Shown one piece after another: positions 38,174 to 64,000 of a DNA stretch of 64,000 bases. The translations under genes were made by a program, and so were the position numbers. The notes beneath the pieces are model-generated. The model was not told the DNA's origin. It was given only the letters and a program-made list of their open reading frames with translations, and did not search any database. This stretch comes from Colius striatus. Its lineage: Eukaryota > Chordata > Aves > Coliiformes > Coliidae. The stretch spans positions 744,001 through 808,000 of the forward strand of contig NC_084776.1 of assembly GCF_028858725.1 (NCBI RefSeq), written 5' to 3'. The stretch's first letter is position 1, and each line of letters begins with the position of its first letter.

Positions 38174-41100
38174 ATGGAGGAGCTGAGCAGCGTGGGAGAG
38201 CAGGTCTTCGCCGCCGAGTGCATCCTCAGCAAGCGGCTCCGCAAGGTGGGACCCGCCGCGCCCCCCCCGCCCGCCCCCCCCATCACCCCCCCCGTCTCCG
38301 CCGCCGCTAACGTGCCTCTCTCGGTGTCTTTCCGCAGGGCAAGCTGGAGTACCTGGTCAAGTGGCGCGGCTGGTCCTCCAAGTGAGCGGGGCTGCGCGGC
38401 GCGGGGCTGCGCGGTGCGGTGCGGAGCGGTGCGCGGCCGCGGAGGTGCCGCCCGCCCGCCCGCTTTTGTTCGGGTCGCGCCGTTCCTTTTGTTTACAAAT
38501 AAGCGCGGCCGCGGCCCGGCTCTCACCCCCCGCCGCGTGGGGCTCCGCTCCCCCCCACCCCCCGCTCCCAACCCCGTTCTCACCCCCGTCGGCCAGGTAC
38601 CGGCCCCGCGCTCCCCGCTGAAACCGGACCTCCCCTGGGATGCGCGGGGCTCCCCTCAGCCCGCGGCAGCGTGGCCACCCCCTCCCCGATCTGCCTCACC
38701 CCGCTGCCGAGATGCGCCGGTTCCCGCGCCGTCCGGTGCTGGGTGCTCGGCCCCGGGCAGCGCGATGGGCCCGTTTGTCCTGGGATGAACTCCCCGGTGC
38801 TGGGCCGGTACCAGGGACGGTGCGGAGCACCAGACCCCCGCTCTTGCCCAATCCGTGTCTTCTCTTGCAGGCACAACAGCTGGGAGCCCGAGGAAAACAT
38901 CCTCGACCCGCGACTCCTCCTGGCTTTCCAAAAGAAGTGAGCAAACTAGAAATATTTCTAAGCGAATGATAAAGTCAATTAACTTTTAATTGGCTGCGCG
39001 TGCGGTGGAAGTTGTGGAAACAACAGGCTGCAGCTCGCCGTGCCGCCTGTGGCACGGCCCTTTTGTTCATCTCCTGGAAGCCCAGCTCAGGTCCCCCTCA
39101 GCCGTTGGTGCCTGGCCTGGGCGAATGCCACGAGCTCACGGCCCCCACACGCAGGCAGCTCCTGCGCTGCCTCTGCCGCCGGAGCACGGCCCCACACACA
39201 TCCAGCGTGGCCTGGGCAGTGCTTGGGAGGCAACAGCCGGCCCTAGGGGGTGGGTAGCACCTGGGACTGCAGAAACAGAGGACTCGGAAGGCACCAGAAT
39301 GTACTTCTGGAGGGTACAGCCATGAGAGGGTCGGGGTAGCGGGTGGGAGCAAACGGTGTGCTCTGCCAGGGCTGCTGCCCGAGCCAAGCTGGGACCAGCG
39401 ACGGTTCTGCAGCTGTTGCACCCCAGGAATCACCCAGGGAGGTACAAAGGGAGCTGGATGGCTACGGGAAGCACAGAGCTGGGAAATCTTCTGGCTCCAT
39501 ATTAATAAAAACCACTAAAGTTTATGATAGGGTTCAACTTTAACTCATTTCTGGATCCATGTTCTTAAGAGTAGAATCTGGTGCGTAGTGCAGGCAGCAC
39601 AGTGTTTAATCAGCCACTTGTATTACAGCTCAACACTGGCCCTTCTAAACAAAACAGTATAGTAACCTGAGAGCACTGCCCTTCCCATCCCCTCCAAGTA
39701 AGTGATGTTCTCAGAGCCTGTAGGATCATCACATGTCAGTAGGGGTTAAGGAATAGTCTCAGGTGTTCCTCAGGCACGGAGACGGGAGCTGACCCTTCAA
39801 GGGTTTTTTTTAAGGACAGAAGAATGATTTTGTATGTTTTCTTCTGCCCTGCAAACGTTGTCCTCAATTGCTGCTTTTTCAGGGAGCACGAAAAAGAAGT
39901 GCAGAATCGGAAGAGGGGCAAGAGGCCCAGGGGCAGACCCAGGAAACACGTGGTGAGTCCTGGCAGTGGTGGAAATCCGCAGGCACGAGGGTGCCAGGGG
40001 GCTCTGGCCTTGGAAGGCACCAGCAAGTGCCTCTCCACAGCAGGGTGGGCTTGGCCCCAGGAGGGTGGTGAGGACACAGCCATCCAGACCCAGGTCAGGG
40101 GCTTGGATGGATGAGGATGGATGGATAAGGATGCCTGTGAGGACGCATCTCTTCATCACTGCTCTGGCAATGGGACTGAAGGAGGCAAAGGAGTGCCCTG
40201 GCACCAGAGTCGTGCCTGGTATTTAAGAGACTGTACTGTACGCTCCCTAACTCGTTCCATGGCAGAGGACAACAGATCAGCTCCCGTGGAGGAGCCTGTG
40301 TGTGACCAGGCAGCACTGAAGGGTTTGCAGTTCCCACAGTGGTTCCTGTGGTAATGTGTTAACTCTTTCCCCGTCCCTCTCCATTGCTTTGCAGGAACCA
40401 GAGATGCCTGCGAAAGCGAAGTCAAGCAGCTCCTCTTCCTCCACATCTTCCTCTTCCTCCTCCTCAGATGAAGAGGATGAAAGTGACCTGGAAGCAAAGA
40501 GAGGTCCCCGCAGCAGAGAGACTCACCCAGTACCACAGAAGAAAGCTCAGATCCTGGTGGCAAAGCCCGAAACGAAAGACGCTTCCAGGAAGAAGCGTGG
40601 GCGGAAGCCTCTTCCCCCGGAGCAGAAAGTGTCTCGAAGGACCGTGAACCTGACAAAGGTGCTGAAAACATCCCGGAAGGAGGCGGGTGGCAGCACCAAG
40701 CTGATGGGGAAGCTGCAGCCCCAGCACAGCACGCAGGGCTCGGGCATGGCCCTGCTGAAGGACCCGCCAGGAGCCTTGGCTGGGCTCAGCTCAGGGGGGT
40801 CGTCTGCAGAAAACCTGCCCAACATGCTGAAGGGCGGCTCGGCGAGCCCAACGCGGGCCATCAGCTGGCAGAGCTCCATCGTGCACTACATGAACAGGAT
40901 GTCCCAAAGCCAGAGCCTGGCAGAGACCTCGCCCCTGGGCAGGCTGGCGCTGAAGTCGCAGGCATCCAGTAAGAGCGGCCTAGGGCTGGACTTAAAACTG
41001 AGGAACCAGAAAGGATCAGGGGAGCTTGGGCTGAGCGTGCAGGGTGCCAAGGGCGCCAAAGCTCCTGGCAACGGCGCTGCAGGGGACCAGAAATCGGGGT

Positions 41101-41744
41101 TTGCTGCGGGAGGCCAAATGCTGCACAATGGCAGCAAGACATCGGCGAGCTCCTCCGGGGCCGGCAGCCAGCCCGCCTCCAGCCAGGAGCTCAACCTCCA
41201 AGCTCTAAACCTGCAGAGCGTCAAGAACGGGCCGAGCGCGGCTGGGGGGAGCAGCATCCCCCGACACCTCTGCGCTGCCCTGGCCAAAGGCCCCGGCGCT
41301 GGCACAGCAGCCGGTGCGGGTGCCGGCGGCACAAAGGGCGGCACGGCGGGTGCCGGGCTGAACGCTGCCAGCGCCGCGGGGCTCTCGGGGGGGGACGGCA
41401 GCAAGAGCGAGAAGCAAACGCAGCGAGCAGGCGACAGGGACTCGGCCAAGAGCAGCACAGGCGGCGCGCAGGAGGGACACGCGGCCGCCGAGACCCGCAA
41501 GCCGGCCACCCTTTCCGAAATGAGCACAGGCGAAGAGACCAGCTCGGATTCAGACCGGGATTCAGCTTCCTTCCCGGGCGTGGGGCAGAACATGTCTGTC
41601 TCCATCCAGACCAGCCAGGACTGGAAGCCCACCCGCAGCCTGATCGAGCACGTCTTTGTCACCGACGTGACCGCGAACCTGATCACAGTGACGGTCAAGG
41701 AGTCGCCCACCAGCGTCGGGTTCTTCAACCTACGGCAGTACTGA
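38174..41744 (+). CDS. CBX2: CBX2, Polycomb chromobox protein 2 (PRC1 subunit)
   Basis: Coding exons are 38174-38245, 38338-38381, 38871-38936, 39883-39952 and 40395-41744, joined in frame to 533 codons (human 532). All introns are GT-AG. CBX2 targets canonical PRC1 to H3K27me3 chromatin and compacts nucleosomes. The chromodomain spans about residues 9-62, with aromatic-cage residues F12, W33 and W36. An AT-hook core RPRGRPRK lies at 75-82. A serine run (about 94-107) leads into an acidic stretch, the known phosphorylated and condensing region. A second basic [13 protein letters not shown] motif follows. The middle is low complexity, with a Gly/Ala-rich stretch. The C-terminal Pc box (about 497-533, [20 protein letters not shown]) binds RING1 proteins. 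The start has GCC before ATG and G at +4. CBX2 faces CBX8 tail to tail. Confidence 0.97.
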
Positions 41745-49554: not shown

Positions 49555-51520
49555 TCATCGTTTCTCTTTAAAGAATCCTTGGTCCGTGCTGCTCTCCTTG
49601 ATGGTGACGGTCAAAAAGTTAGAGGTCACGTCAGTTACCACCACCTTCTCCAGGTTGTTGAGAGAGGGGCTCCAGGACTCCTCCTCAGGGTCCCCCAGGA
49701 TCCTGGAGACGGGGATCCTGGCGATGAGGGAGGGTCGCCCCGCCTGGCCCCCCACGCCGTCGCGGTACAGGCTGCCCACGGCGCCCGAGCTCACCGCGCT
49801 GTGCAGGAGCTTGGGCCCGCCGGGGTCCAGGCCCCCCTGCCCCTTGGGGTCCAGAAAGTCCGCGCGGTGCTTGGCCAGCCGCGGGGGGTAGGTCTCGGCG
49901 GCCCCCAGTTTGGCACCCACCTCGGCTCGGTTGGGGCCGGGCAGGGCTCCGGGGAGGTCGGGGTCCTGCCGCCGGGCCAGCTGGATGACGCTGTGTCCCG
50001 AGCTGAACTTGGCCGCCCCCGCCGCCGCCTCCTCCATCTTCCTGGCCTTCAGGTAGTCCCCCACCTTGTCCCCTGGGTCCCCCAGTTTCCTCTTGGAGGC
50101 ATCCAGAGTCTCCGCCAGGTCCTTGTAAAGCTCCTTCCTGGGCTTCGGGCCTCTCTTTTTGGGGGTCTCCCCAGGTTTCTCCTCCACGCGGATCACGCGG
50201 TCCCGGATGCCGTCCGCCTTGGGGGTGCTGGTGCTGGAGCTGCCCTGGGGAGCCAGGGCTATGTTTCTCAGTCCTTCCCGGGCCCGGGACGTGGAGCCCA
50301 GCTCCTGGGGCGACCTGCCGGGATACGGCACCCGGATCCCTCTGGAGGAGTCGCTGCGGAATTCATACGTTTTGGCTTTTGCCTTTGCCTGGGCCTGCAA
50401 AGAAGATAAATCACCCGGTGACTTTATTATCCTTCCATCCGGCTGCATAATTGCAACTTGCAAGGCAAGAGGCCGCCTTTGCAAGGAGCATCCTCCACGG
50501 GGGACCCCCTGCTCCCTGCCGTAGCACACGAGCACGGGGCTGCGGCCTCCTCACCTTTAGCAGGAAGGTTTTGGGCTTGGGGCCTCGCTTTTTGGGCCCA
50601 TAGAGTTCCATTTCTCGCTCCCTAGAGGTGTTAAAAAAAACAAAGCTTCAATTCAGCATAGCTACAAGACAGCAACATCTTTACGAGTGCAAGGGCTAAG
50701 GGTAGTAAAGGCCTTGTACCTCTCCTCAAAGGCTGCGAGCAGCCGGGCATCCAGGATGTTCTCCTCGGGTTCCCAAGTGCTGTACCTGAGGAGAGGGGGG
50801 CACAGGGAGAGGGAACAGCATCAGGAGCCAGGAACAGGGGAAAATAAAATGCACAAAATAAAAAACAGGGAGCATAAAGGAAGGAGCCCAAGTTTCCTTC
50901 CCCTACAAGAGAGGGGGAGGGTCGCAGCCTGCTGCCTCCCCACAGCCCCCACCCGGCTGCAGAACCCCACGGACCAACGGCCGACTTACTTCTGAGACCA
51001 GCCCTTCCATTTTACGAGATACTCCATGCGCCCCTGCAGAGGCAAAGAGGGAAAATAAAGATGCATGGAGCGAAACCGCGACCAACGACCACAACAAAGA
51101 TAACGCCTGCAATTCCACGCGTGCGACCCCCACGCGTGTGGAAAAGCCGTGGGGGGGGAGGGGGAGAGCGGGGAGGGGAGGGGGGTGGGATGCAACAACA
51201 ACAGAAAATACATCTATTACAAAAACGATGGTTCATAACCAAGGGCGGGCGGGGGGCAGCGGCGGGGGACGCCCGCCCCGCCGGCGGGGAGCGCCCGGGC
51301 ATGCGGCGGGGAGAAAGAGCCGCCCCCAACGGGCGCCGAGCCGCAACCGGGCCGGGGCCGCCGCAGCGGCGGGGCCGCGGGGAGCGGAGAGGGTGTCGGG
51401 GGCCGGGGGAGGCGCGGGGTACGGGCCCGGGGGACGCGGGGAAGCACCTACTTTGCGGATGCGGCGCTTGAGCAGGGCCTCGGCCGCGAAGACGCGCTCC
51501 CCGACGGCCGAGAGCTCCAT
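49555..51520 (-). CDS. CBX8: CBX8, Polycomb chromobox protein 8 (PRC1 subunit)
   Basis: Coding exons, in order of transcription, are 51520-51452, 51033-50990, 50785-50720, 50621-50555 and 50394-49555, giving 361 codons (human 389). CBX8 is a canonical PRC1 subunit that reads methylated H3K27. The chromodomain (about residues 8-61) keeps cage residues F11, W32 and W35. Two basic KKRGPKP motifs follow, near residue 69 and again in the middle. The C-terminal Pc box reads [20 protein letters not shown], next to the conserved [14 protein letters not shown] stretch, and the protein ends GFFKEKR. The long Arg-Asp/Arg-Glu dipeptide array of the mammalian protein is nearly absent (only [11 protein letters not shown]), accounting for most of the length difference. 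Introns are all GT-AG. Exons 2 and 3 match those of CBX2 in length and phase. Confidence 0.97.
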
Positions 51521-51730
51521 GTTTACGCGGCCGCTCGCAGCACACAGGCACCGCCAGCGCAGCCCAGACCATAATACTCCGCCCGCTGACGTCAGCGCCG
51601 CGGCCCCCCCCCACTCGCCCCCCCTTCTCCCGCTCTCCGCCCCCCGCCCCCCCCCCCCCCGCACTTGTTGCTGGCGGAGACGGGTGGAATATTCCGCCCG
51701 CGCCGCATTGGCTCGCGCCGCCGCTCCGCC
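51521..51730 (-). promoter_or_regulatory. CBX8: CBX8 promoter with CRE, GGAATATTCC palindrome and CCAAT box
   Basis: Upstream of the CBX8 start codon lie a perfect palindromic CRE, TGACGTCA (51587-51594), the palindrome GGAATATTCC (51686-51695) and a CCAAT box on the transcribed orientation (ATTGG on plus, 51707-51711). The DNA is a CpG island with no strong TATA box. CREB/ATF and NF-Y are the known binders of the first and last motifs. Occupancy is inferred. Confidence 0.6.
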
Positions 51731-54700
51731 CCCCGACGTGCGCCGCGTCCCGATGAGCGCGGGGCGGGACCGGCGGCGGGGGCGCGCGGGGAGGCGGGAC
51801 GCCGCGCCCCGCCACGCCCCGCCACGCCCCCCGCGTCACGCCCCGAGGGGGGGCGGGGGTTCGGCGGAGGCCCCGAGGGGGCGGGGGGGGTGCGGTGGAG
51901 CGGGGAATAGGGGCAGCGGAGCACAAAGGCGCCCTGGGGACCCCCCCCCCCCACCGGCACCTGGACGGGGCAGACCGGGGAGGGCGGCGGGACCGGCGCT
52001 GTGTCGGTGCCGGGACAAAGGGAATGGTGTCTGAGGCGGGAGCGCTGCGCCGGGGCGGCAGAGCCCGCGGGGGCGAGGAGCCGTCCACGGAGACACGCGG
52101 TCCCGCGTGATGCTGAGCGCCGCCGCTCCTGCGAGAGTGCGAATCCTTCCAGGCGGCAACGGGCAGTGCTGGAGCTCAGCGGCCTCAGGGTTCCAGCCGC
52201 TGACAGCCCCCGGCTCCACGCCCCGGGAGGCAGAGGAATTTCCCCACGCGGGATTTGGTGTGTCGTGTCCCCCTCACGCCAGCAGCGTGTGGGGCTGAAA
52301 ACCGATACTGGGACTCTCCCCGGGCCCCACTGCGGCTCTGACTCTCGCCCCACTCTGGAGCCGTCTCTTTCCCCCGCCGCGAGTCCATCCTCGAGGCAGC
52401 CACGAGAAACCGACACGCGAGTCCAAGCCGTGGAGGCTGGGTCCAGACTCCGGAGGTCTCAAGCGAGCGGAGGCTCGTCCGGAGCCGAGCAGGGTCCCAA
52501 ACTGCTGCGGGGTCAGAGAGGGGCTCCAGAGGGTCCCGGCCACGCTTCAGTGCAGCAGTTTCCATGCTCGGCAGCAGCGGCGCCTCCCGGGAATGCATCG
52601 CGCGTGGGATACGCAGCACCACGGCACGGTGCTGAGTGGGCTTCTGCAGCACTGTCCACGCGGGACGAGGACGGAGGAGTCTCTCGTGGATCTGTCCTTG
52701 TCTCCTGCTCTCCGCAAAAGAGCTCGAAGCCAATGGGAAGCGGACCTCGGCTGCAGCCGCGCTCACGCGTGGAAGCTCCCACTGTGGGCGTGGCCGCGAG
52801 GATCTCCGAGATCATCCGAGAGATGAGACCGCGGCCGCCTCACCCCGGGTCTCCGCTGGGGCTCTGTCACCCGTGACGGGGATGGCGAAGCCGGGGCGGC
52901 TGTGGGACCATCTCTGCTGTGCGCCCGCTCAGTGTCAGGGCTACGGGTCACTTGGGGTCCGGGGGGGAGCAACGGGATCTGGGGTACGCCGGGAGCGACA
53001 GCGGGGACACAAGAGCACCCGCACCGCAGAGCCCTGCCCGGTACCGCCACTCGGGTGCGCGGGGATCTACAACAGGGTCACGGGGACAACGGTTCCCCTG
53101 CGGTGGGAGGTGACACGAGTGGGGGCCTTGGGCAGGAGAGTCTGGAGCCCCACGGGAGACGTGGGGCGCGTGGACATCGTCCCTTAGGGCAGAGCCCTCC
53201 TCCCACCGCTGCTGGCCGAGGCAGAGCCACGCTCACGGGAGAATCCATCACGCGGCTCCCGTGGGCTCCCTGCTCCGTGCGTCCAACTCTGCGGCCGCAG
53301 GAGCTGCTGCACTGAGCGGATTTTGCGCGGCGTGACCGGCTGGACGCGGAGGATGGCGCGGGTGCGGAGGGGCCGGGAGGGGAAAGTGTATCTCCTGTGC
53401 CCTCCCGGCCCCCAACGAGCCGCATCCCGAGAAGTTTTTCGTTAATATCGAATTAAATGTTGCTAATTAAGGCAAGTGGCGGAGCGGCTCTTGGATTGTC
53501 GTGAAAGCGTTAGTCTGAATCCTGCTCCAGGTAAACTGCCGCCCAGTAGAGAGACTCGGGGGGCAGTGGGTCCTCGGGGGGGGCGTGGGCTCATGCGTGG
53601 GGTCAGCGTGGGATGTGGATCGTCCTTTCAGGCTTCATGGTGCCGGCACCGCCTCCTCGCCTGCTACCCGGGGTTACAGGAGCAGCGTCCGTGACGGCTT
53701 AGCAGGGCTCGTCCCTGTGGCCGTGGGGGTACTGGAGCCCGTGGAAAAGGGGTGTTTACTGCCAGTGTCCCGGCGTAGGTGGGGAGCACGGTCCCGGAGC
53801 GGTACCTCCCCCACCCGGAGCTCCCCGCCGAGTAGCTGCATCTGCCTTATCGCCTGTGCGGATCTACGAGGGTTCTCGAAGCCCCACAGGCACGCGTGGG
53901 GACGGAGACGGGAGACGCCGCGGCTCCAGCCGCCTCTCGTGTGGGCACCGGCGGAAGGCATCGCTCCATCCGCAGCCATGACCCAGGCGGGCGCCCCAGG
54001 GGCCAGACGCTGGGTCCCTTGTTGCGGTGCGGGGGGGCAGGGAGAAGACGACATGTAAACGAGAACGGCGTGGGGAAAGCAGCGGGGAGCGACAGCCGCT
54101 GAGTGGGGGTCCGGATGGAGCTCCTGGGTCGTGACCGAGCCAGAACCGGGGCTATGGCCGCTCCTGGGGGGTCTTGGCCCTCAAGGAGAAGAGGGAGGGA
54201 GCCGCCCCGGGACGAGAGAGCGGCGGGCGGGACAGTCCCCAGCTCTCCCAGTCAATTCCTCTCTCTCAACGAAGGTTGCCGAGGGACTCTGTGGCTCCGT
54301 GGACCGGCGCCGGAGGTCCCGCGAGAGCCCCTCCCTCCCTCCCGGGCTACAGGGAACAGGAGCGGACTCCGGGTACGGGCCGCCCTCCACTCTCCAGAAG
54401 TCAACGGCAGTAGCTGCCTGGGGACCCCACGGGGCTCTCGGCTAGGGCGGTAGCTCGCCCTCGCGCCTCCTCCACTCCCGCCCCGTCCCGCGGTGGGGGG
54501 CTTGGCGATGGACTCGGGGACGCCTCCAGCCCGGCGAGAGCGTGTGCCTCCGTGGCAAAACCCGTTTTCCTCCTATTTGACCCCAAATCCACCCCTGTGC
54601 CGCCGGATCTCTGCTCCCCCAGCCCGTACTCGTGCGATGAGCTCCTCAGGACTCAGCGGGCCGCCGCGGGTCACAGCGCCCGGCTCCCCCCTCGTTTCTC

Positions 54701-56923
54701 GCTGTGTAGGGGCTTGTACTGCTGCGAGCTTTGCAACGAAACCGGGGGGCTACTCCCCCGCCCGGGACCACGCGTGGGAGCGGCGGGGCGAGCATGCGTG
54801 TCCGAGTGCGGCTGAGCCGAGGGCAGCGGCGTGGCGGGAGGGAGCTGGCTCCAACCCAACCGCCGGCACGATCGATCTCCTCGCCGCAGCCGGGCTCTTC
54901 TCCGTGGCTTCCTATGCGCTGCAGTGAGCGCGTTTCAGAAGCCGCTCCGCCCCACGGACACCCACGTCCAGGAAGGCTACGATACAGTCCAGCTCCCGGT
55001 CCAGATCGGTTCCGCGAGTGGACGAGGCTGTCGGTGCTGGTCGTACACCCGGGTACGTCACGGTCGCACTCCTCCGTGTCTCCTCCTCCTGGGCGACCCG
55101 TGCATGGCCCCATCGCTGCGACCGCGGCGAGAAGCGGGGGCAGAGTCGCCTCTTCGGTCCGCAAGCCGGCCGGTCCAGATCTGTGTCCTGAGAGAGGAAT
55201 CCCGCATCCTGGAGACGCATTCCACGCGAGCTCTCTGTGTGCGTGGATGCCCCTCACCGCGCCCTCGGGGCAGCCCGTCTTGATTGGCCCCGCCGCCCAG
55301 TTCGGCTGCGAATTTCTTCCGATCCGGTCCCATTCTCGAACCGGACAGGAAAACGATTCTCTCCACTGGTGTCCGTACAGAGCCACGACGAGTCTGGTGG
55401 TAAATTCACGCCTCTCGGGCCGGTACCGGGCTGTCCCGCGGGACGGGTGCACCCTCGGGGACTCCGCGGTCCCTCCGACCCCAGCCTTGCCCCGGGCTCG
55501 GGTACAGCCCGGCCGCCGGTACTCTGCCTTTTCGTTTCGGAGCAGCTCGGGCCGAAGCAGAGAGGTTTCAACCGGCTCCGGGCTGTGGCACCTGCAACCC
55601 ACGCGGGAGCAGGCGTCGGGGTCAGGACCGGCCATCCGCGGGACCGAGGGAGGGCCTGAAGACGGGGCCACTCGTGGGCTCGGTGCCGCTGAGACCAGGC
55701 TGCCTGTCTTTCCCAACTTTTTCCGCTGACCACAGCGCTGCAGAGCGCCCTGACCCCCGCATCTCCCGTGCCACCGGGGCTGCTGCCGGTGGGGCCGCGG
55801 ACTCGGCCGCTGCCGGGAGCGCGGGGGTACTCGGTTCGTGCAGGGAAGATTCCGGGGGATTCCCCGCGGGGCCACTCCTTCTCACTCCACGCAGACCAGG
55901 AATTCCCGCGAGAGAAAGGTGACGTGTTGAGCATCGAATTCAGGCCCGGCCAGGGCTGGGGCCAGAGCAGAGGGTCCTGGTCAGAGCCGCCTCTCTCTGC
56001 CCCGTTGGTCGTTGTTCCCCGGTAATAACCGGGGCCTTGGCCAGCCGGCGAGGGCGTCGCTCCGGCGAGGTGCATCTCAACACCTCCGCGGGACCAGCCG
56101 AGCATCCTCTGCGGGACAGTGGAGCCCGAGGCGGCGGTGCTGAAGGACAGCAGCGCCCCGCCGACCGGAGAGACTGAGCCCCGTTTGCCGCCCTCCGCCC
56201 CAGCCCGGCCCGGTTCGATCCCCGGGGACGGGCGCGGGGAGCGGCGGGCGCGGCGGCGGGCGTGGCCCGGGCTCGTCCCCGGGGTGCCGCAAGAGAAGGC
56301 GGCCCGATTAATTCCAGGTGCTTTCCATAGGTGGCACCGTCCTACTGGAAATGGCGGCTGAGTCCTCTGCTCAGCCGGCGGCGCTCCCGCCACCCCCGGG
56401 GGGCACTGCTGTCCCCTGAGCCCCGGGGACCCCCCCGCACCGAGGGCTTCGGAGGGGCCAAGTGCCCGCAGGAGGCTCCGGGGGATGGGATAGTCCCCGC
56501 GCCCCCAGGGCGGTGAGAGGGGTTTCCCCTCCCCAGTTCCCACGGGGAAAAGCAGCAACTGTCCTCCTCCGGAGCACCCACCCGCGAACCGTCCGAGAGT
56601 CTCCCGCATCGACATTGCGCGTGGGAGCCTCACGGGAGCTGCACCACGCGTGTCCCTGCAGTCACCGGGGCACCCTCCTCTGCATGGCCCAGGAGGCCGT
56701 GGCGCCCCAAGCACTGCTCGGGCGAGACTGAGTGGCAGGGTCAGCACCTGCATGCCCTTGCGGGAAGCGTCCAAGAGGACCCCTGAGCGCCCACTCCCCA
56801 TTTTCCAAGCGTGACGGATATGCACCGAGAGCTGCTCCTCCCCTCCTGCCCCGAGGCCTCCCACTGCAGCCGCGTGGCTCTGCGGGTCGCACCGAAACTC
56901 CCGTGGGAGGGAAATGCTGCTCC

Positions 56924-56980
56924 CGTGTGTGTGTGTGTACGTATGTGTGTGTGTGTGTGTGTGTGCGTGTGTGTGCGCGC
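56924..56980. repeat. 57-bp alternating purine/pyrimidine tract, mostly (TG)n
   Basis: From 56924 to 56980 every base alternates pyrimidine and purine, mostly TG with TACGTA inside and GCGCGC at the end. The tract is an uninterrupted candidate for Z-DNA. Confidence 0.9.
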
Positions 56981-57480
56981 TCGCCCCACTTTATCGCCCT
57001 GCTCCAGGTTGCGAGCTGCTGCACAAAAGACCTTTTGTTTCAAGGGGTTCTGAAATTGCTGATTATTTGTAGGCACGTAACTGCGAGTTGTTTGCGGAGG
57101 GGAGAGAAGGAGAGACCGAGCCGAGCACTGCGCCGGGCGAGGAAACCTGAACGCTCCGGGACTTTTCCCCACACCAGCTCCGTCCCAGCTCGCACCGCTG
57201 CCCACGTCCCGCAAGGACGGCAGAAGGACGATTCTGCTGCCTGGCAGCTCCGGCTGCAGGGGCCATGGAAATGCCACAAGAGTGGGCAGGAACCACCCGA
57301 CGGCCTCGCCGCAGCGGGACGGACCGCGCTGCCCAGCCCAGCGGTGCCGGCGGCGACGTTCCCGCCGCGGGAGATCTCATCTGCGATGTGGCCGATGAGA
57401 TGGGGTGCGACTAGAACTCCCCGCTCCCGCCCTCACCCCTGCCCGACCGCGCCCGACCCCGCCCGCGCGCGGCCCCGCAG

Positions 57481-57780
57481 CTCCGCTTTTAACAAAAGCA
57501 ATTAGAGGTGAAACACGGCCCATTTGCATTCCACCTAATGACCGGCGGCGCCTTCTCCCGGGCCGGGGGGGGGGCGGCATCTGCGGCGGGGCCCGGCCCG
57601 GTGTCCCCCCGGCCGCCGCCCCGCCCGCCCCGCACAAGGTAGATGCTGTATTTAGGTTCATGCCCTTATATGGCGATGAGCGCGGCGCCCCGCGGACGGC
57701 GCGCACCATATAAGGAAGCGATGCCAGAGCCGGGGGTGAGCTGGTGAGCGCTGATTGGCCCGTCGGTATCTCAGCAACCG
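57481..57780. promoter_or_regulatory. Compact element: octamer, two inverted CArG boxes, CCAAT box
   Basis: Within 240 bp there are an ATTTGCAT octamer (57522-57529), two perfect CC(A/T)6GG CArG boxes (57664-57673 and 57706-57715) and an inverted CCAAT box (57754-57758). The two CArG boxes are exact reverse complements of one another, with centres 42 bp apart, about four helical turns. CArG boxes bind SRF, octamers bind POU factors and CCAAT binds NF-Y. The combination resembles a promoter or enhancer responsive to serum or muscle signals. No gene is attached to it in the window; CBX8 starts 6 kb to the left. Confidence 0.55.
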
Positions 57781-58710
57781 GCTCTCACGAGTGGCACAGC
57801 CCCGCAACCCCCCCGCAGAGACACCCCCCTTGGTCCGCGGGCGAGGGCACGAAGCTGACACCCCTCTGCTCGCACGGGTAACCCCCGACGGACTCCCTCA
57901 CCTTGACTGTGCACCCCCTTGCCGGGACCCCCCTCCCACCCCGCACGAGCCCCGGTGCCGCCTCGCCGTCCCTTGCGCCCCGCAGCACGCTGCGAGAGAA
58001 GGGGACGCGGTGCCGCCTTCCGTGGGTACCGACGGCGCGCGGGAGCCCACGGCGCCCCAGAACTGCGGCGAGACCGCGACTCCCTGCTCTGTCCCCATAA
58101 CGTGGGTTATGCGGGAGGCCGTGTCCGCCCCACCCGCGGGTCCCAGCGATGCCAAGCGCCAGGAGAGGCTTCAACTGTGCCTCGTCGCATTCCGGCGGCG
58201 GGAAGCCCTGCGGGGCCCGGTCCCCTCCTTCTCGTCCCGCAGAGGCGGGGGCTGCGCCAGGGGAAACCTTCCCGGGAGGCACCGATGTCCTTCGCACCGT
58301 GAGCGGCGGGGACGCCGATTCCCCCGCACACGGGTGCCACACGCACCCGCCGGCGCGGCAAAGCGCTTTCCCGTGTCCAGCCGCCCCGACGCCCCCCGCG
58401 GCCGTTCTCTCGCGGGAGACAGGTCACGACAGCCCAGCTCCCACGCTCGCGTTTTCGGGATGTCCGATTGTCCCGCGGATACCCGCGAAAACTGCCGCCG
58501 GGGAGCGAACTTCGACAGCGCGGGCAAACACGCGTACCCACGCGTGCCCGTTCCGGCCCCGCAGACAGGCACCGGGCGGCCGCCGCTGTGGCGGGCGGGG
58601 GGTGGCGGCCCCTCGCAGAGCCGCAGGGTCGAGTTTTCGTTGCGGCGTCGCCGCGGAGCCGGTGCCGTGGCCGAGCCGTGCCACGCCGCCCCCCTGCCCG
58701 CGCTTCCGCC

Positions 58711-58765
58711 TCCGATTTATTCTCTTTATTTATTTATTTAATTTCTATTAATTTTATTTTAAACC
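58711..58765. other. AT-rich strip inside CpG island
   Basis: A 50-bp stretch of TTTATT/TTAATTT words is enclosed on both sides by CpG-dense DNA. It contains several TAAT cores. No further feature was recognised. Confidence 0.5.
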
Positions 58766-61200
58766 GAGCTCCAGGCCGGGCGCTGCAGGAGCGGCTGCGA
58801 GGCGCAAGGCGAGGCGGGCTCCCGGGTGTGTGGAGGAACCGGTCCGCACCTCCGCCCCCGGGCTCAGAGCCGCCCCTGCCCCCCCCGCCTCGGCGGGCCC
58901 CGGGCGGGGGCTGCCGGCACGTGCCGTCCCGGCGCCGCGGGGGCCGGTCGCGCTCGAGGCCGGGAGCCCCGCTCCCCCCGCCGCGCCGCAGGTGAGGCCC
59001 CGCCAGGGAGGCTGCGTGCCGCCCGCCGGGCCGCCCCGGGGGCTCCGCTCCGGTCTCGCCGGCTCTCGGAACCTCCGGCCGCGCCCCACGCCGTCTGCCC
59101 CGGGGCTCCCCGTGAGGCCTCGCGGCCGGCGGGGAGGGCTACGCCGCTTCCTTGCCATTCCCGTGTCCAACCCCCCCCCATGGCAGGATTCAGCGGGCTC
59201 CGCCGAGCAGCCATTTTCTGCAGCTGCTTCTCCACCGGAGCTTTGCCGGGCGGCGGGGCCGGGCGGCGGCACAGCCCGGAGGAGCCCCCCGCCCCGCTGG
59301 CTACCGCCGGCACCGACGTCCCGAGCCCGGCCGGGCGGGGCCGGGGGCCGGGCGAACTACGCTGCAGGGCTCGCCGTGACAATCCCACCCTTTCCCCGCC
59401 ATTTTGTTACCGTGCTGGCGTTTTCCCAAAGCAGAGACAGAGCGGGAGCCTTGGGAACGGGCACCCGTTGTTCCGGGGCGGGCGGCCCCCCGGCCCCGGG
59501 CCTGGCTCCCCTCCGCCCCCGCCGCGCCGCACCTGGCAGCGGGGCAGGTCCCGGGACGCCCGGCCGCCGCCGGCTCCGTCCCATCGGGATCGCCCCGCTT
59601 CCCTTCGCGCCCCACGCACACAACAGCCGCGGGTCCTGGCTGTGTCCATGCAGGACCTAGTCACGCGGGGCTGGAACCGGTCTTTGGGTCTCTGTCCCCA
59701 GGTGAGGGGACATCCTCCCTTCCCTTCACCATCCTCCCTTCTCGATGGGCCGGGGACGCAGGACTGCTAGCCTCCCTCTTTTTGCCCTACGGGCAGCACG
59801 TGCCCCGACAGCCTGGGGACCGTCCCGTCGGGGAGTGTCCGTCCCGGGGCCGAGCCGCCCGGTACAGAGCCCTTCAACCGGCGACAGCACCGGCTCCTCG
59901 CGGGACCAGCCCAAAAGCCCTCGCGGGAAGTCCGTGGGGATGGCACCACGCTGTGCGTGGCCCACGCGAGGCCGGGTGGCCCGTCAGGGAGGACAGCACG
60001 GACAGCTTGACAGGGAGGGAGACGAGGGGGAGGGAAGCGACCGGGACGAGCCGCGAGGCTGTGCCGGTGGCGCGGGGACGGGCGGGCGGGATGCCCTGAC
60101 GGGGAGGGCTGATCCCTTCACCCGTGCGGGGGGTTGACGAAGGTCGGCGGCAAACACCAAGCGGGGGACAGAGCGGGCAGATGCGTGTCACTCGTCCCAC
60201 GGCTGCACTCCCGGGACGAGGGGATTACTCGGCTGTGGCACGATGCGGGAGACCCGAGCGCGGTGGTGGCGGGAGCGAAGCGCGGCGGGGCCGGCCGGTG
60301 CTCCGGGTTGGGCCGCTGGAGCCGAGCGGCGGGTGAAGGCGGAGAAGGCAGCGGGGAAGGAGGGGGGGCTCCCGCAGTGCTGCAATGCAGCGCCGCGCCG
60401 AGAGCCGAGCCCGCCGGCCCGGCAGCGCTCCGCCGCTGCTGCAATGCAGGTGTGAGCACCGCACCGCGCCGGGCTGGACCGGGCCGGGCATCCCCTATCC
60501 CGCCAGGCCTTCCCCCACCCCAGCCACACTGGGTTTTGGGTCTCCTCCCCTTTCTCGCTCCCGTTTCGTTTTCTTCCCGCCCCTGCCGAGACCGCGGGAC
60601 GTTTCCTCCCGCCTCGGGACACAACCGACCGGTGTCCCCGGGACCTTCCGCTCACGCTCTGTTTGCCAGGAGGGTCTCATCGTGCTCCGGGCGCTGTTCG
60701 CCCCCACACCAGCAGTCCCTCTGGCCCTCCCCGCTCCCTGGCTTCTCTCTAGGAGTGCCGCGAAGCCCCCGCTGCTGCACCGACTCGGGGCGAGTCCGCG
60801 GTTCCTGGAGGAATCTCTCCCACCTCACGTTACCTTCGAGCTGCCCCTCGGGGCCCCCCACCCGGTTATCAGCCACAGCTTCGCCTCCTCCCCACCCTCC
60901 TCTCCTCGCGGTCCCTTTGCAAACAACGCTGTGGGATCCACGCGGGACCCCAAGCAGGGGGTCCCACGTCCGCTCCCCTGCCCCGCGTCCGCCGTCTGAC
61001 ACTTGGACACGCACCGCGAGGACACGCAGCAATGCGGATGCGTGTGGGAGCATCGGCGAAGGGGGAGCCCCACGCCATGACCCCCCTGCTCGGGCGGGCA
61101 CGCTCGAGGCGTGGGTGCGCGCTGGTGTGCGGGCACAGCTGCCGGTGAAACACGCGAGAGCCCTGGAGAGAGGGAACTGATCTTACGAAAGTCTGAACTG

Positions 61201-64000
61201 ATGAGCATACAAATCCATCAGGGAAGGCGAATCACAAGGAGAGCGGTGGGGAGTGGTGCTTTTAAAGCCAGTGTAGTCACCCACTGCCCGTCCCTGTCCC
61301 ACAGGCGTGGATTGCACCCCTACACCCCTCGCCTTTCGGGGTCCAGCCCCAGCAGCCCGGGCCTAGCGCTGCTGGGCCAGCCCTGGGTTTGCCTTCTCGC
61401 CTGCTTATTTTTCCCTGACGCGGTGAAAATGGCACCGCGCTCCAGCTCCAGCCGGCGCGGACTTCAGCCGCTGGATCTGTGGCGTCTTCGTTTACCATTA
61501 TGAAAGCTCGTCCGAGTCCCTGAATATCTCCCTTGTGTTGAGGTTTACGGGCTGATCAAAAGATCCTTCACCACCCCCTTGGGACGCCGAGCAGCCCCAC
61601 GCCCCCGGCTGCCCGGGCTTCCCGTGCCCTCACCGCATCCTCCGCCTCCGACTCCTCTCCAATATTTCAGTATCTCTTTCGAGCTACCGGAGACCGTCAC
61701 ACGTGAGAGCGGGCTCACCAGTGCCACACACCGAGGCAGTACTGCCAGCCCGCTCCGCCTTGAACTCCCCCCCGCCAGCACCGGGCACCTCTGGCGCTGC
61801 CGTCCCGGCCCTCCGTGGGACACAGCCCCGCTGGGAGGTGGGGACGACGACACACGACGGCGCCGGGATGGCGACCCTAAGCCATAGTCCTCGAGCTTCG
61901 ATTTTATACTTGAACTCGCCCAGGCAGGCTGTCCCCACAGAGCGGGTGTGCGGGTGCAGAGCCCTCCCTGATCACAGACCCCGCACCGCTGCCGCCGGAC
62001 GAGCAGCTCCCGTTCGGGACCCGCCTCGAGCAGGTCCAGCTCTTGGCTCCTCACTCCGTGCTCTCCCTCCAGGAACGGGAAGGAAAGGAACTTGAGGAAC
62101 CCACTCGTCCCGGTGGGGGCACGTCCTGTTGAGCCCCACAGCCCCGCACCGAGCTGCTGTCGGATCGGTTCTCTTCAAGAGCCCTCCGGTTACTGCATCC
62201 CCTTTGCCATTCAGCCCTTCCATAGAGACTCTTTGTCTCGTGGGCAGCCAGCTCACCCTTCGCCTGGCCGCTCCCCCCAGCCCACGCCTAGAGGGGAAGT
62301 CTGCTTCCCACGGCCTCATCGTGCCGCCCCCCACCTTGGCATTGGGCTCCCCAAGCACAAGGGATGATGTCCCGTGCAACAAAACCTGTTTCGTGGACTA
62401 GAGAGGTGCACAAAGCAGAGGTGAAATTGCCTTTCCAGGGAAAGAAGGAAAGAAAGGAGTTAAGCCTGTTAGTCCGAAGCCAGAAAAGGCGATGCCACGG
62501 CCAAGAGTTCTTGGTCCCAAACCCGGACGGGAGATGGAAATGGTTCCCGTGATAATGCTCCTTTCTGCTCGGCCGTTGCTGCAAACCACAAATTGCTGCT
62601 CGCAGCACAAACCATGGCAATGTGATACACTAGATTAGATGTCTCTTGTTGGCTCTCTCTGCGCTGCGTTTGCTAAGAGCTATTTCTGAGTTCTGCGAGT
62701 TAAAGCACCTTCAAGAAGCAGAGCATCAAACGCTGGAAAACTGGGTCTGCTTCGGGTTGCAGGAGTACAAAAATTAAACCATCAGGAGCACGGAGACCGT
62801 GGAGCGAGTGAAGAATGCTTCAAAGCTCAGAGGGACCCCCAGGGAGGGTTAAAAATGGCTCAGGGTCAGGTTAAGCCTTTAAAGTCAAGATAAGATCCTG
62901 TTCCAGCAGCCCGCCGGGGAGAGCCAGGGCACCTCTGGGGTCCGACCGCCACCACGCCGGCTTCTCCCGGTGAACCCATCGTGGACCTCCCCGGTTCAGC
63001 CGTCGCTGGTGGCTCCACGTGCAGAAGGACCCGAGCGGAGGCGGGTGGTTGTGCGGCCAAATCCACGCAGGGCAGCGGCTGCGAGGTACACAGCTGATGT
63101 GGAAGCAGAAGCCTGGCTCCTGCAGATGGATGAGCACATCAGAGACAGCCTCTCCTCCTTCACTTCTCAAGCCCTGTGCGGTTACTATCCCCTGTGACAA
63201 CGTTTATCAGTATAGGTGAAAGTCACCATTTATTTGATGGTTTGAGGGGTTTCAATGGCTCCCTGGTACAAACCTTCCCTCTCCGAAGCTCCTGGTTGGT
63301 GTTTGACGGCATCTGACGCTCATTGCCTCTTAAAAAAATTCCTTTAGCCAAAACAGGAATGCACCTTTTCCCAAGCCCCCGGGGCTGTGAGCTCTGTGCG
63401 GGGCTTGGGGAGCGCGCTCCCCTCGACAGCACCCCGGAAACAGGAGAGAGAGACACCAGCAAAGACACCCGGAGATTTTGCCCCAAAAGGGGCGGGGGGG
63501 AAACCTCAACCCAAACCTCCATCTCCTGATACCACAATGTCCGGCTCCCACCAAGACCGTTTCCAGATTTCCTCCTGCTCTCTCCCAGCACCGGGGATTG
63601 CTGCCCGCCGCGGTCCCCCGAGGGGTGTGTGGGGGTGTGCAGAGCCCACCCTGCAGCCCAGCCCGCGGACTCGCCGCCCCCCTGCCCCGCCGGCAGCTCC
63701 ACTGCCCGCCCCCCCGAGCTCTCACCCCCGCGGCTGTTCAACCCTCCAGCCCCCAGCAGCATCAGTTTTGTACTATCTAAAGCAGCTGGGGACTGATTCT
63801 GCCTCGGAGCTGGTACGGCGATGCCCACGCGGTGTGACACTGAGCCACGGAGCATCTCCCCCTGCCTGGGGCAGGACCAGCCCGGTCCCAGTGGCCATCC
63901 CGGCTCTAGTGCTGGCTATCCTGTGCTCATCCGACCGCTACCAGCATCTGGAAGGAGAGAAGTGCAGAGCCCAGATTTCCACCCTGGCCTCTCAGCCCTC
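61201..64000. other. Intergenic toward the right edge, no gene recognised
   Basis: CpG density falls in steps after 61.2 kb. No coding exon, RNA gene or repeat family was recognised on either strand. By conserved order CBX4 (minus strand) should follow outside the window. Confidence 0.45.

What the first reader, a model, noticed from the sequence alone, without database searches (positions are those of the whole stretch)
57481..57780. SRF/POU/NF-Y-type element in the CBX8-CBX4 interval
Two perfect CArG boxes that are exact inverted copies, 42 bp apart centre to centre (about four helical turns), sit with a perfect octamer and a CCAAT box in a CpG island. A chance pair of consensus CArG boxes in such GC-rich DNA is unlikely. 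It suggests an SRF-responsive promoter or enhancer inside a Polycomb gene cluster, possibly starting an unannotated noncoding transcript or acting on CBX8/CBX4.
Basis: partly seen in the sequence, partly recalled or inferred. Interest (0 to 1): 0.7.

Follow-up and report, generated by a model that had tools for sequence, protein, structure and literature searches.

The report
SRF-type promoter between CBX8 and CBX4
A short stretch of DNA between two Polycomb genes carries the same set of control sites as the promoter of the SRF gene, so it is probably an ordinary kind of signal-responsive promoter in an unexpected place, but nothing here shows that it is active.

Summary
CArG boxes CCTTATATGG (57664-57673) and CCATATAAGG (57706-57715) are exact inverted copies 42 bp apart, with an extended NF-Y site (57751-57760, minus strand) and an octamer (57522-57529, minus strand), inside an 11-kb CpG-rich tract. 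CBX8 starts at 51520 on the minus strand; CBX4 lies at about 74.2-70.6 kb, beyond the window.

In 0 of 3000 shuffles of the tract is there a CArG pair within 60 bp. In 324 kb of this genome the only pair within 100 bp is this one. The exact inverted pair, in this order with a 20-50 bp gap, was reported at two places in 1.21 Gb; the other has 30% GC.

The main control is DNA upstream of SRF exon 1 in the same genome: octamer, two CCAAT boxes and CArG boxes in a CpG island, CCAAT-to-CArG 41.5 bp (here 45.5), outer CArG-to-CArG-like 43 bp (here 42). The two are not detectably homologous. It is a single control.

Best reading: an SRF/NF-Y promoter, perhaps firing toward CBX8. Conservation and activity could not be tested.

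The parts
57664..57673 (.). CArG box 1, CCTTATATGG (near-palindrome; on the minus strand it reads CCATATAAGG and holds a TATA-like TATAAG starting at 57670)
   Evidence: the same 10-mer is named among SRF-bound conserved CArG boxes of the mouse Srf promoter and intron 2 in PMC4524680 (passages)
57706..57715 (.). CArG box 2, CCATATAAGG, exact inverted copy of box 1, 42 bp centre to centre (4.0 turns at 10.5 bp per turn)
   Evidence: the same 10-mer stands upstream of SRF exon 1 in this genome, L036:3358
57751..57760 (-). Extended NF-Y site GGCCAATCAG; its CCAAT is 45.5 bp from the centre of CArG box 2
   Evidence: the motif definition is recalled
57522..57529 (-). POU octamer ATGCAAAT, 143 bp from CArG box 1
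57485..57545 (.). AT-richer block (GC 0.43 in 60-bp windows starting at 57481 and 57486) holding the octamer plus SOX-like AACAAAA, homeodomain-like CAATTA and TAATGA, and a TEAD-like CATTCCA; a possible separate enhancer-like module
   Evidence: factor assignments are recalled consensus matches
57612..57640 (-). Predicted start region of a minus-strand transcript (about 30 bp downstream of TATAAG at 57670) followed by GC boxes; inferred only, and a strict initiator scan found none (minus strand 57401-57780, plus strand 57601-57900)
51001..62000 (.). CpG-rich tract around the element and the CBX8 5' end (GC 0.70 and CpG observed/expected 0.88 for 52001-61000)
49555..51520 (-). CBX8 coding region from its ATG (51520) to the stop at 49555; the element lies 6.1 kb upstream
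   Evidence: tblastn with recalled human pieces; ORF 49555..50535
38174..41744 (+). CBX2 coding region

Best explanation
The stretch from about 57.61 to 57.76 kb is a CpG-island promoter or promoter-like element of the SRF type. SRF dimers would bind the two CArG boxes on one face of the helix, NF-Y would bind the extended CCAAT site 45 bp away, and together they would open the island and recruit polymerase in response to SRF cofactors (MRTF or ternary complex factors). Read on the minus strand the order is NF-Y, CArG, CArG/TATA-like, so the favoured direction is toward CBX8, starting near 57640, as an unannotated noncoding RNA or an upstream CBX8 start. Shown: the sites, their clustering beyond chance in this tract, and the matching layout upstream of SRF exon 1 in this genome. 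Inferred: binding, activity, direction, product and target.
For: 0 of 3000 shuffles of 51001-62000 have a CArG pair within 60 bp. It is the only CArG pair within 100 bp in 324 kb examined (20 spaced stretches of contig C23, six flank stretches, the window). The exact inverted pair (CCTTATATGG, 20-50 bp, CCATATAAGG) was reported at 2 places in 1.21 Gb, with 0 for the reversed control pattern; the other has 30% GC around it, no octamer and one CCAAT; the opposite order was not searched and the tool calls some counts lower bounds. SRF control: octamer, two CCAAT, CCATATAAGG, CCATAAAAGG, CTTTATATGG; CCAAT-CArG 41.5 bp, outer CArG to CArG-like 43 bp, against 45.5 and 42 bp here. I chose SRF before reading its sequence, recalling that its promoter is autoregulated and has two or more CArG boxes; its octamer, CCAAT boxes and spacings I did not know. 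The likeness is not detectable homology: 18 of 55 other GC-rich 600-bp pieces (overlapping; 3 of 58 dropped for GC of 0.6 or less) match the SRF stretch as well or better by blastn. PMC4524680 (passages): of SRF peaks in C2C12 cells 57% (877 of 1,540) had CArG boxes and about 43% (560; the paper's denominator is not clear to me) lay in start-site CpG islands; the Srf CpG-island promoter is SRF-bound at three CArG boxes including CCTTATATGG. PMC12868001 (passages): actin promoters combine TATA, CArG and CCAAT boxes, and beta-actin can be modulated by SRF and NF-Y.
Against: No conservation, chromatin or transcript data could be had. No strict initiator, no canonical TATAWAWR box in 57401-57900 and no strong GTRAGT splice donor in 57301-58600 on either strand. 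No consensus ETS site CCGGAAGT is present; one looser AGGAAGC overlaps CArG box 2. The octamer lies on the other side of the CArG pair (downstream on the minus strand, upstream in SRF). 43% of SRF peaks in that study had no CArG box, and it counts some 3.1 million (loosely defined) CArG boxes in mouse, so most are unbound. SRF had been listed as a local NF-Y partner in earlier ENCODE data but is absent from, or was removed in, the reprocessed analysis (PMC7793273, passages), so SRF/NF-Y pairing in general is not firmly supported there. Only one control promoter was read.
Confidence: 0.55

Rival explanations
1. A distal enhancer with two modules (SOX/POU/homeodomain/TEAD-like block at 57.49-57.54 kb and CArG/NF-Y block at 57.66-57.76 kb) that acts on CBX8 or CBX4 without a stable transcript of its own.
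For: It lies 6.1 kb upstream of the CBX8 ATG and about 13 kb beyond the CBX4 stop. Of the 25 ORFs of at least 150 aa lying wholly in 52001-64000, the 10 tested, most of the longest, match no Pfam family at E 0.01. The AT-richer block stands out in the tract and holds several developmental-type sites. Near human CBX4, LINC01977 is a super-enhancer-associated noncoding gene (PMC9389757, passages).
Against: The CCAAT-CArG-CArG order and spacing are those seen upstream of SRF exon 1. In that paper JQ1 lowered LINC01977 in A549 cells while the change of CBX4 was not significant. Whether that human super-enhancer corresponds to this place is unknown.
Confidence: 0.25
2. A chance cluster of motifs in a long CpG-rich tract, not bound by SRF.
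For: Single motifs are near or below chance over the window; 4 of 300 whole-window shuffles hold a CArG pair within 60 bp; the motifs were picked after reading; no conservation could be tested.
Against: 0 of 3000 shuffles of the tract; only pair within 100 bp in 324 kb; agreement with the SRF layout.
Confidence: 0.15
3. A structured RNA (for example a microRNA hairpin) whose two arms happen to read as inverted CArG boxes.
For: The arms are perfectly complementary and fold into a hairpin; z-scores for 57650-57730 are -1.94 (plus) and -1.82 (minus) as RNA and -1.93 as DNA.
Against: For 57640-57760 (40 nt more in all) the z-scores are -0.79 and -0.54; no Rfam match at gathering score in the window and only one chance-level hit (E 1.5) in 900 bp.
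Confidence: 0.02
4. A Polycomb recruiting or tethering site rather than an SRF site.
For: It sits in a long CpG-rich tract at Polycomb genes. The PRC1-tethering word AAACGAAA of PMC10681801 (passages) occurs in the tract at 55530 and 60564.
Against: Neither AAACGAAA nor AATCGAAA lies within 57181-58080, and none of the three YY1 patterns tried lies in 57401-57900.
Confidence: 0.03

Closest known systems
SRF gene promoter (autoregulated CpG-island promoter with several CArG boxes)
   Same: In this genome the DNA upstream of SRF exon 1 has an octamer, CCAAT boxes and CArG boxes in a CpG island; CCAAT-CArG 41.5 bp against 45.5, outer CArG to CArG-like 43 bp against 42; it shares the 10-mer CCATATAAGG.
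   Different: SRF has a further CArG box between the outer two, two CCAAT boxes, and the octamer upstream of them; its last box is one letter off consensus (CTTTATATGG). No detectable homology. A known gene lies just downstream there; none is known here.
Beta-actin type promoters (CCAAT, CArG, TATA)
   Same: NF-Y site, then CArG, then a TATA-like word on the minus strand; the class is described in PMC12868001 (passages).
   Different: The TATA-like word is part of the second CArG box and is not canonical; actin spacings were not compared here.
[quoted passage not shown]
   Same: CCAAT plus CArG at a developmental regulator (PMC10735318, passages).
   Different: One CArG box reported, not an inverted pair; the Nr2f promoter of this genome could not be read.

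Membership tests
SRF-target CpG-island promoter | Consensus CArG box(es) CC(A/T)6GG | tested here: met
   two
SRF-target CpG-island promoter | Lies in a CpG island | tested here: met
   GC 0.71 and CpG o/e 0.91 in about 500 bp around the pair
SRF-target CpG-island promoter | Site clustering beyond chance for the local composition | tested here: met
   0 of 3000 shuffles
SRF-target CpG-island promoter | Layout shared with a known SRF-regulated promoter in the same genome | tested here: met
   one promoter only; that the Srf promoter is SRF-bound comes from mouse data in PMC4524680. Octamer position differs
SRF-target CpG-island promoter | CArG boxes kept across species | not testable with these tools
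   no relatives held; exact-word scans of viral and prokaryote collections gave 0
SRF-target CpG-island promoter | SRF occupancy | not testable with these tools
   no ChIP data
SRF-target CpG-island promoter | Transcription start at the site | tested here: inconclusive
   TATA-like words on both strands but no strict initiator or strong splice donor; no RNA data
Ternary-complex (SRF plus ETS) element | ETS consensus beside a CArG box | tested here: not met
   no CCGGAAGT; only AGGAAGC at 57713 overlapping CArG box 2
PRC1-tethering element | AAACGAAA-type word at the element | tested here: not met
   nearest are 55530 and 60564
Structured noncoding RNA | Fold clearly more stable than shuffles, or an Rfam match | tested here: not met

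The most novel reading that the evidence does not exclude
An immediate-early, SRF/MRTF-driven promoter inside the CBX2-CBX8-CBX4 cluster that starts an unannotated minus-strand transcript (noncoding or an upstream CBX8 start) and so lets growth-factor or actin signalling set which CBX subunit canonical PRC1 receives.
Probability: 0.15. Interest if true: 0.65.

Novelty: new member of a known kind. Interest (0 to 1): 0.42.

Why it matters
If active, it would be a direct DNA link between serum and actin signalling (SRF) and the genes for canonical PRC1 subunits. How the PRC1 subunits are switched is usually discussed in terms of Polycomb feedback (recalled). It gives a small, well-bounded element that can be tested by mutation. 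As a kind of element, an SRF/NF-Y CpG-island promoter is ordinary; its place is what would be of interest.

Tried and rejected
Hairpin RNA or microRNA: folds only weakly better than shuffles, and the effect fades with more flank; no Rfam family. Rejected.

Copy of the SRF promoter: a 48-column 81% blastn match exists, but 18 of 55 other GC-rich pieces reach the same or a higher score, so it looks like composition (the alignment display in that call came out empty). Rejected.

Dispersed repeat: the 300 bp match only themselves and one place on contig C19 (60 bp, 82%, query 81-139, the GC-rich stretch without any of the four motifs; the tool skips very common words). Rejected.

Protein-coding gene at the element: 10 of the 25 ORFs of at least 150 aa wholly within 52001-64000 were tested against Pfam, 0 of 10 matched at E 0.01; the other 15, shorter exons, and the 2 ORFs listed in L003:1-6500 were not tested.

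YY1, CTCF, NRF1, E2F and AP1 consensus patterns: none in 57401-57900.

Bacterial promoter and terminator scan and tRNA scan: nothing found; of no weight for a vertebrate.

Conservation: three exact-word scans of viral and prokaryote collections in the hope of stray vertebrate DNA, 0 matches each. Five words from the element searched in paper texts: 2 papers hold only CACCTAATGACC; not opened.

Literature on CBX8 or CBX4 with SRF or CArG: searches (0 papers; 3; 2; 2; 208 papers with two of CBX8, CBX4, LINC01977; one listed). I opened passages only of PMC9389757 and PMC10969950 (the latter not asked for SRF) and PMC7925104 and PMC4063784 (CBX4 and SRF named apart). The other papers of those lists, among them PMC10910311, PMC12594630, PMC8935234 and PMC11941731, were seen in the listing only. 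CArG spacing: search 37 (2 papers), passages of PMC2200674, which plants CArG and ETS pairs; the passages seen say nothing of CArG pairs.

CBX6-CBX7 (paralogous cluster), EGR1 and globin controls: not completed (CBX7: 34, 64, 68; EGR1: 66, 71, 74; globin: 27, 32, 65). An NR2F gene could be located but its promoter not read.

Full report
What is there. The boxes are perfect inverted copies 42 bp apart. The CCAAT box is part of GGCCAATCAG on the minus strand, the full extended NF-Y site as I recall it. The element is therefore 6.1 kb upstream of the CBX8 ATG and about 13 kb beyond the CBX4 stop. Of the 25 ORFs of at least 150 aa wholly within 52001-64000, 10 were tested against Pfam and none matched; the rest of the interval was not tested for coding exons.

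Is it more than chance? Single motifs are not: 3 CArG boxes in 64 kb against a shuffle mean of 2.75, 2 octamers against 1.23, and CCAAT is depleted, 48 against 128.5. The place matters. From 51 to 62 kb the DNA is about 70% GC with CpG observed/expected near 0.9. There 0.11 CArG boxes are expected; 12 of 3000 dinucleotide-preserving shuffles hold two or more and 0 of 3000 hold two within 60 bp. Over the whole window 4 of 300 shuffles contain such a pair, so the strength of the statement rests on the local composition. In 324 kb of this genome (20 spaced stretches of contig C23, six flanking stretches and the window) this is the only pair of CArG boxes within 100 bp. CpG-island-like DNA was rare in the 200-kb sample, 3,500 bases, and held no CArG box, too little to give a rate. 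In the whole 1.21-Gb genome the same inverted pair, in this order with a gap of 20-50 bp, was reported at two places and the reversed control pattern at none; the other place has 30% GC around it, one CCAAT and no octamer.

A control that speaks for the reading. I chose the SRF gene as a control because I recalled that its promoter is regulated by SRF itself through CArG boxes (self-regulation is also stated in PMC4524680, passages); I did not know its octamer, CCAAT boxes or spacings in this genome. SRF exons lie on contig C3, 98% identical to the recalled MADS piece in two parts. The DNA some 0.5 kb upstream of the MADS-coding match, in a CpG island, reads, centre to centre: octamer, 23.5 bp, CCAAT, 31 bp, CCAAT, 41.5 bp, CCATATAAGG, 20 bp, CCATAAAAGG, 23 bp, CTTTATATGG. 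The element on its minus strand reads: CCAAT, 45.5 bp, CCTTATATGG, 42 bp, CCATATAAGG, and 143 bp further the octamer. So the same set recurs with the same CCAAT-to-CArG and outer CArG-to-CArG distances to within 4 bp. The octamer is on the other side, and SRF has one CArG and one CCAAT more. The likeness is not detectable common descent: blastn between the two is no better than for 18 of 55 other GC-rich pieces. This is one control promoter, not a survey; EGR1 and Nr2f could not be read.

How it would work. SRF binds CArG boxes as a dimer; boxes 42 bp apart lie on the same face (4.0 turns). NF-Y bends DNA and helps to open CpG-island promoters (recalled). On the minus strand the second CArG box contains TATAAG starting at 57670, which would place a start near 57640, just before a run of GC boxes. 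On the plus strand the mirror word starts at 57709 and would place a start near 57740, but the NF-Y site would then lie downstream of it. I therefore favour transcription toward CBX8, with moderate confidence at best: a strict initiator scan found none, and no strong splice donor lies in 57301-58600 on either strand. The block at 57485-57545 with octamer, SOX-like, homeodomain-like and TEAD-like words may be a separate enhancer module.

What print says, as far as seen. In C2C12 myoblasts 1,540 SRF sites were analysed, 57% (877) with CArG boxes and, as the paper puts it, approximately 43% (560) in CpG islands of start sites (its denominator is unclear to me); the Srf promoter is SRF-bound at three CArG boxes, one of them CCTTATATGG, and a noncoding RNA aligns upstream of it (PMC4524680, passages). 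Actin promoters combine TATA, CArG and CCAAT boxes (PMC12868001, passages). [quoted passage not shown] Against a general SRF/NF-Y pairing, SRF was formerly listed as a local NF-Y partner but is not in the reprocessed ENCODE analysis, partly for reasons of data quality (PMC7793273, passages). Near human CBX4 there is a super-enhancer-associated noncoding gene, LINC01977 (PMC9389757, passages); whether it is related to this element is unknown. I saw no paper on an SRF element at CBX8-CBX4 in searches, judged from listings (20 of 208, 12 of 22) and a few opened passages; most subscription papers and all supplements were out of reach.

What could not be done. No other vertebrate genome could be compared, so the decisive test, conservation, was impossible. 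No chromatin or RNA data were at hand. The species was not identified.

Verdict. A real, non-random motif cluster, more likely than not of the SRF/NF-Y promoter type; ordinary as a kind, somewhat unexpected in place; activity, product and target unproven.

Noticed in passing
window 51001-62000: An 11-kb CpG-rich tract reaches from the CBX8 start far into the CBX8-CBX4 interval (GC about 0.70). In 200 kb sampled from the same contig only 3,500 bases were CpG-island-like.
   Followed up: partly
window 55530-55537, 60564-60571 (AAACGAAA, minus) and 53437-53444 (TAACGAAA, minus): The word AAACGAAA, reported to help tether PRC1 to human genes (PMC10681801, passages), occurs twice in the CBX8-CBX4 CpG tract and once in the last CBX2 exon (40570). 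With AATCGAAA the window has 4 against 1.02 expected, reached in 0 of 100 shuffles.
   Followed up: partly
window 53430-53470: A second AT-rich islet in the CpG tract, with TTAATATCGAATTAAAT and TAATTAA; it looks like a homeodomain-type element and was not tested for anything.
   Followed up: no
window 57006-57060: Another AT-richer islet 0.5 kb from the element, about 30 bp from a GT repeat at 56925-56975.
   Followed up: no
L036:3263-3410 (upstream of SRF exon 1 of this genome): This stretch contains a perfect octamer besides its CCAAT and CArG boxes; octamer plus NF-Y plus CArG may be a recurrent promoter grammar worth a genome-wide count.
   Followed up: no
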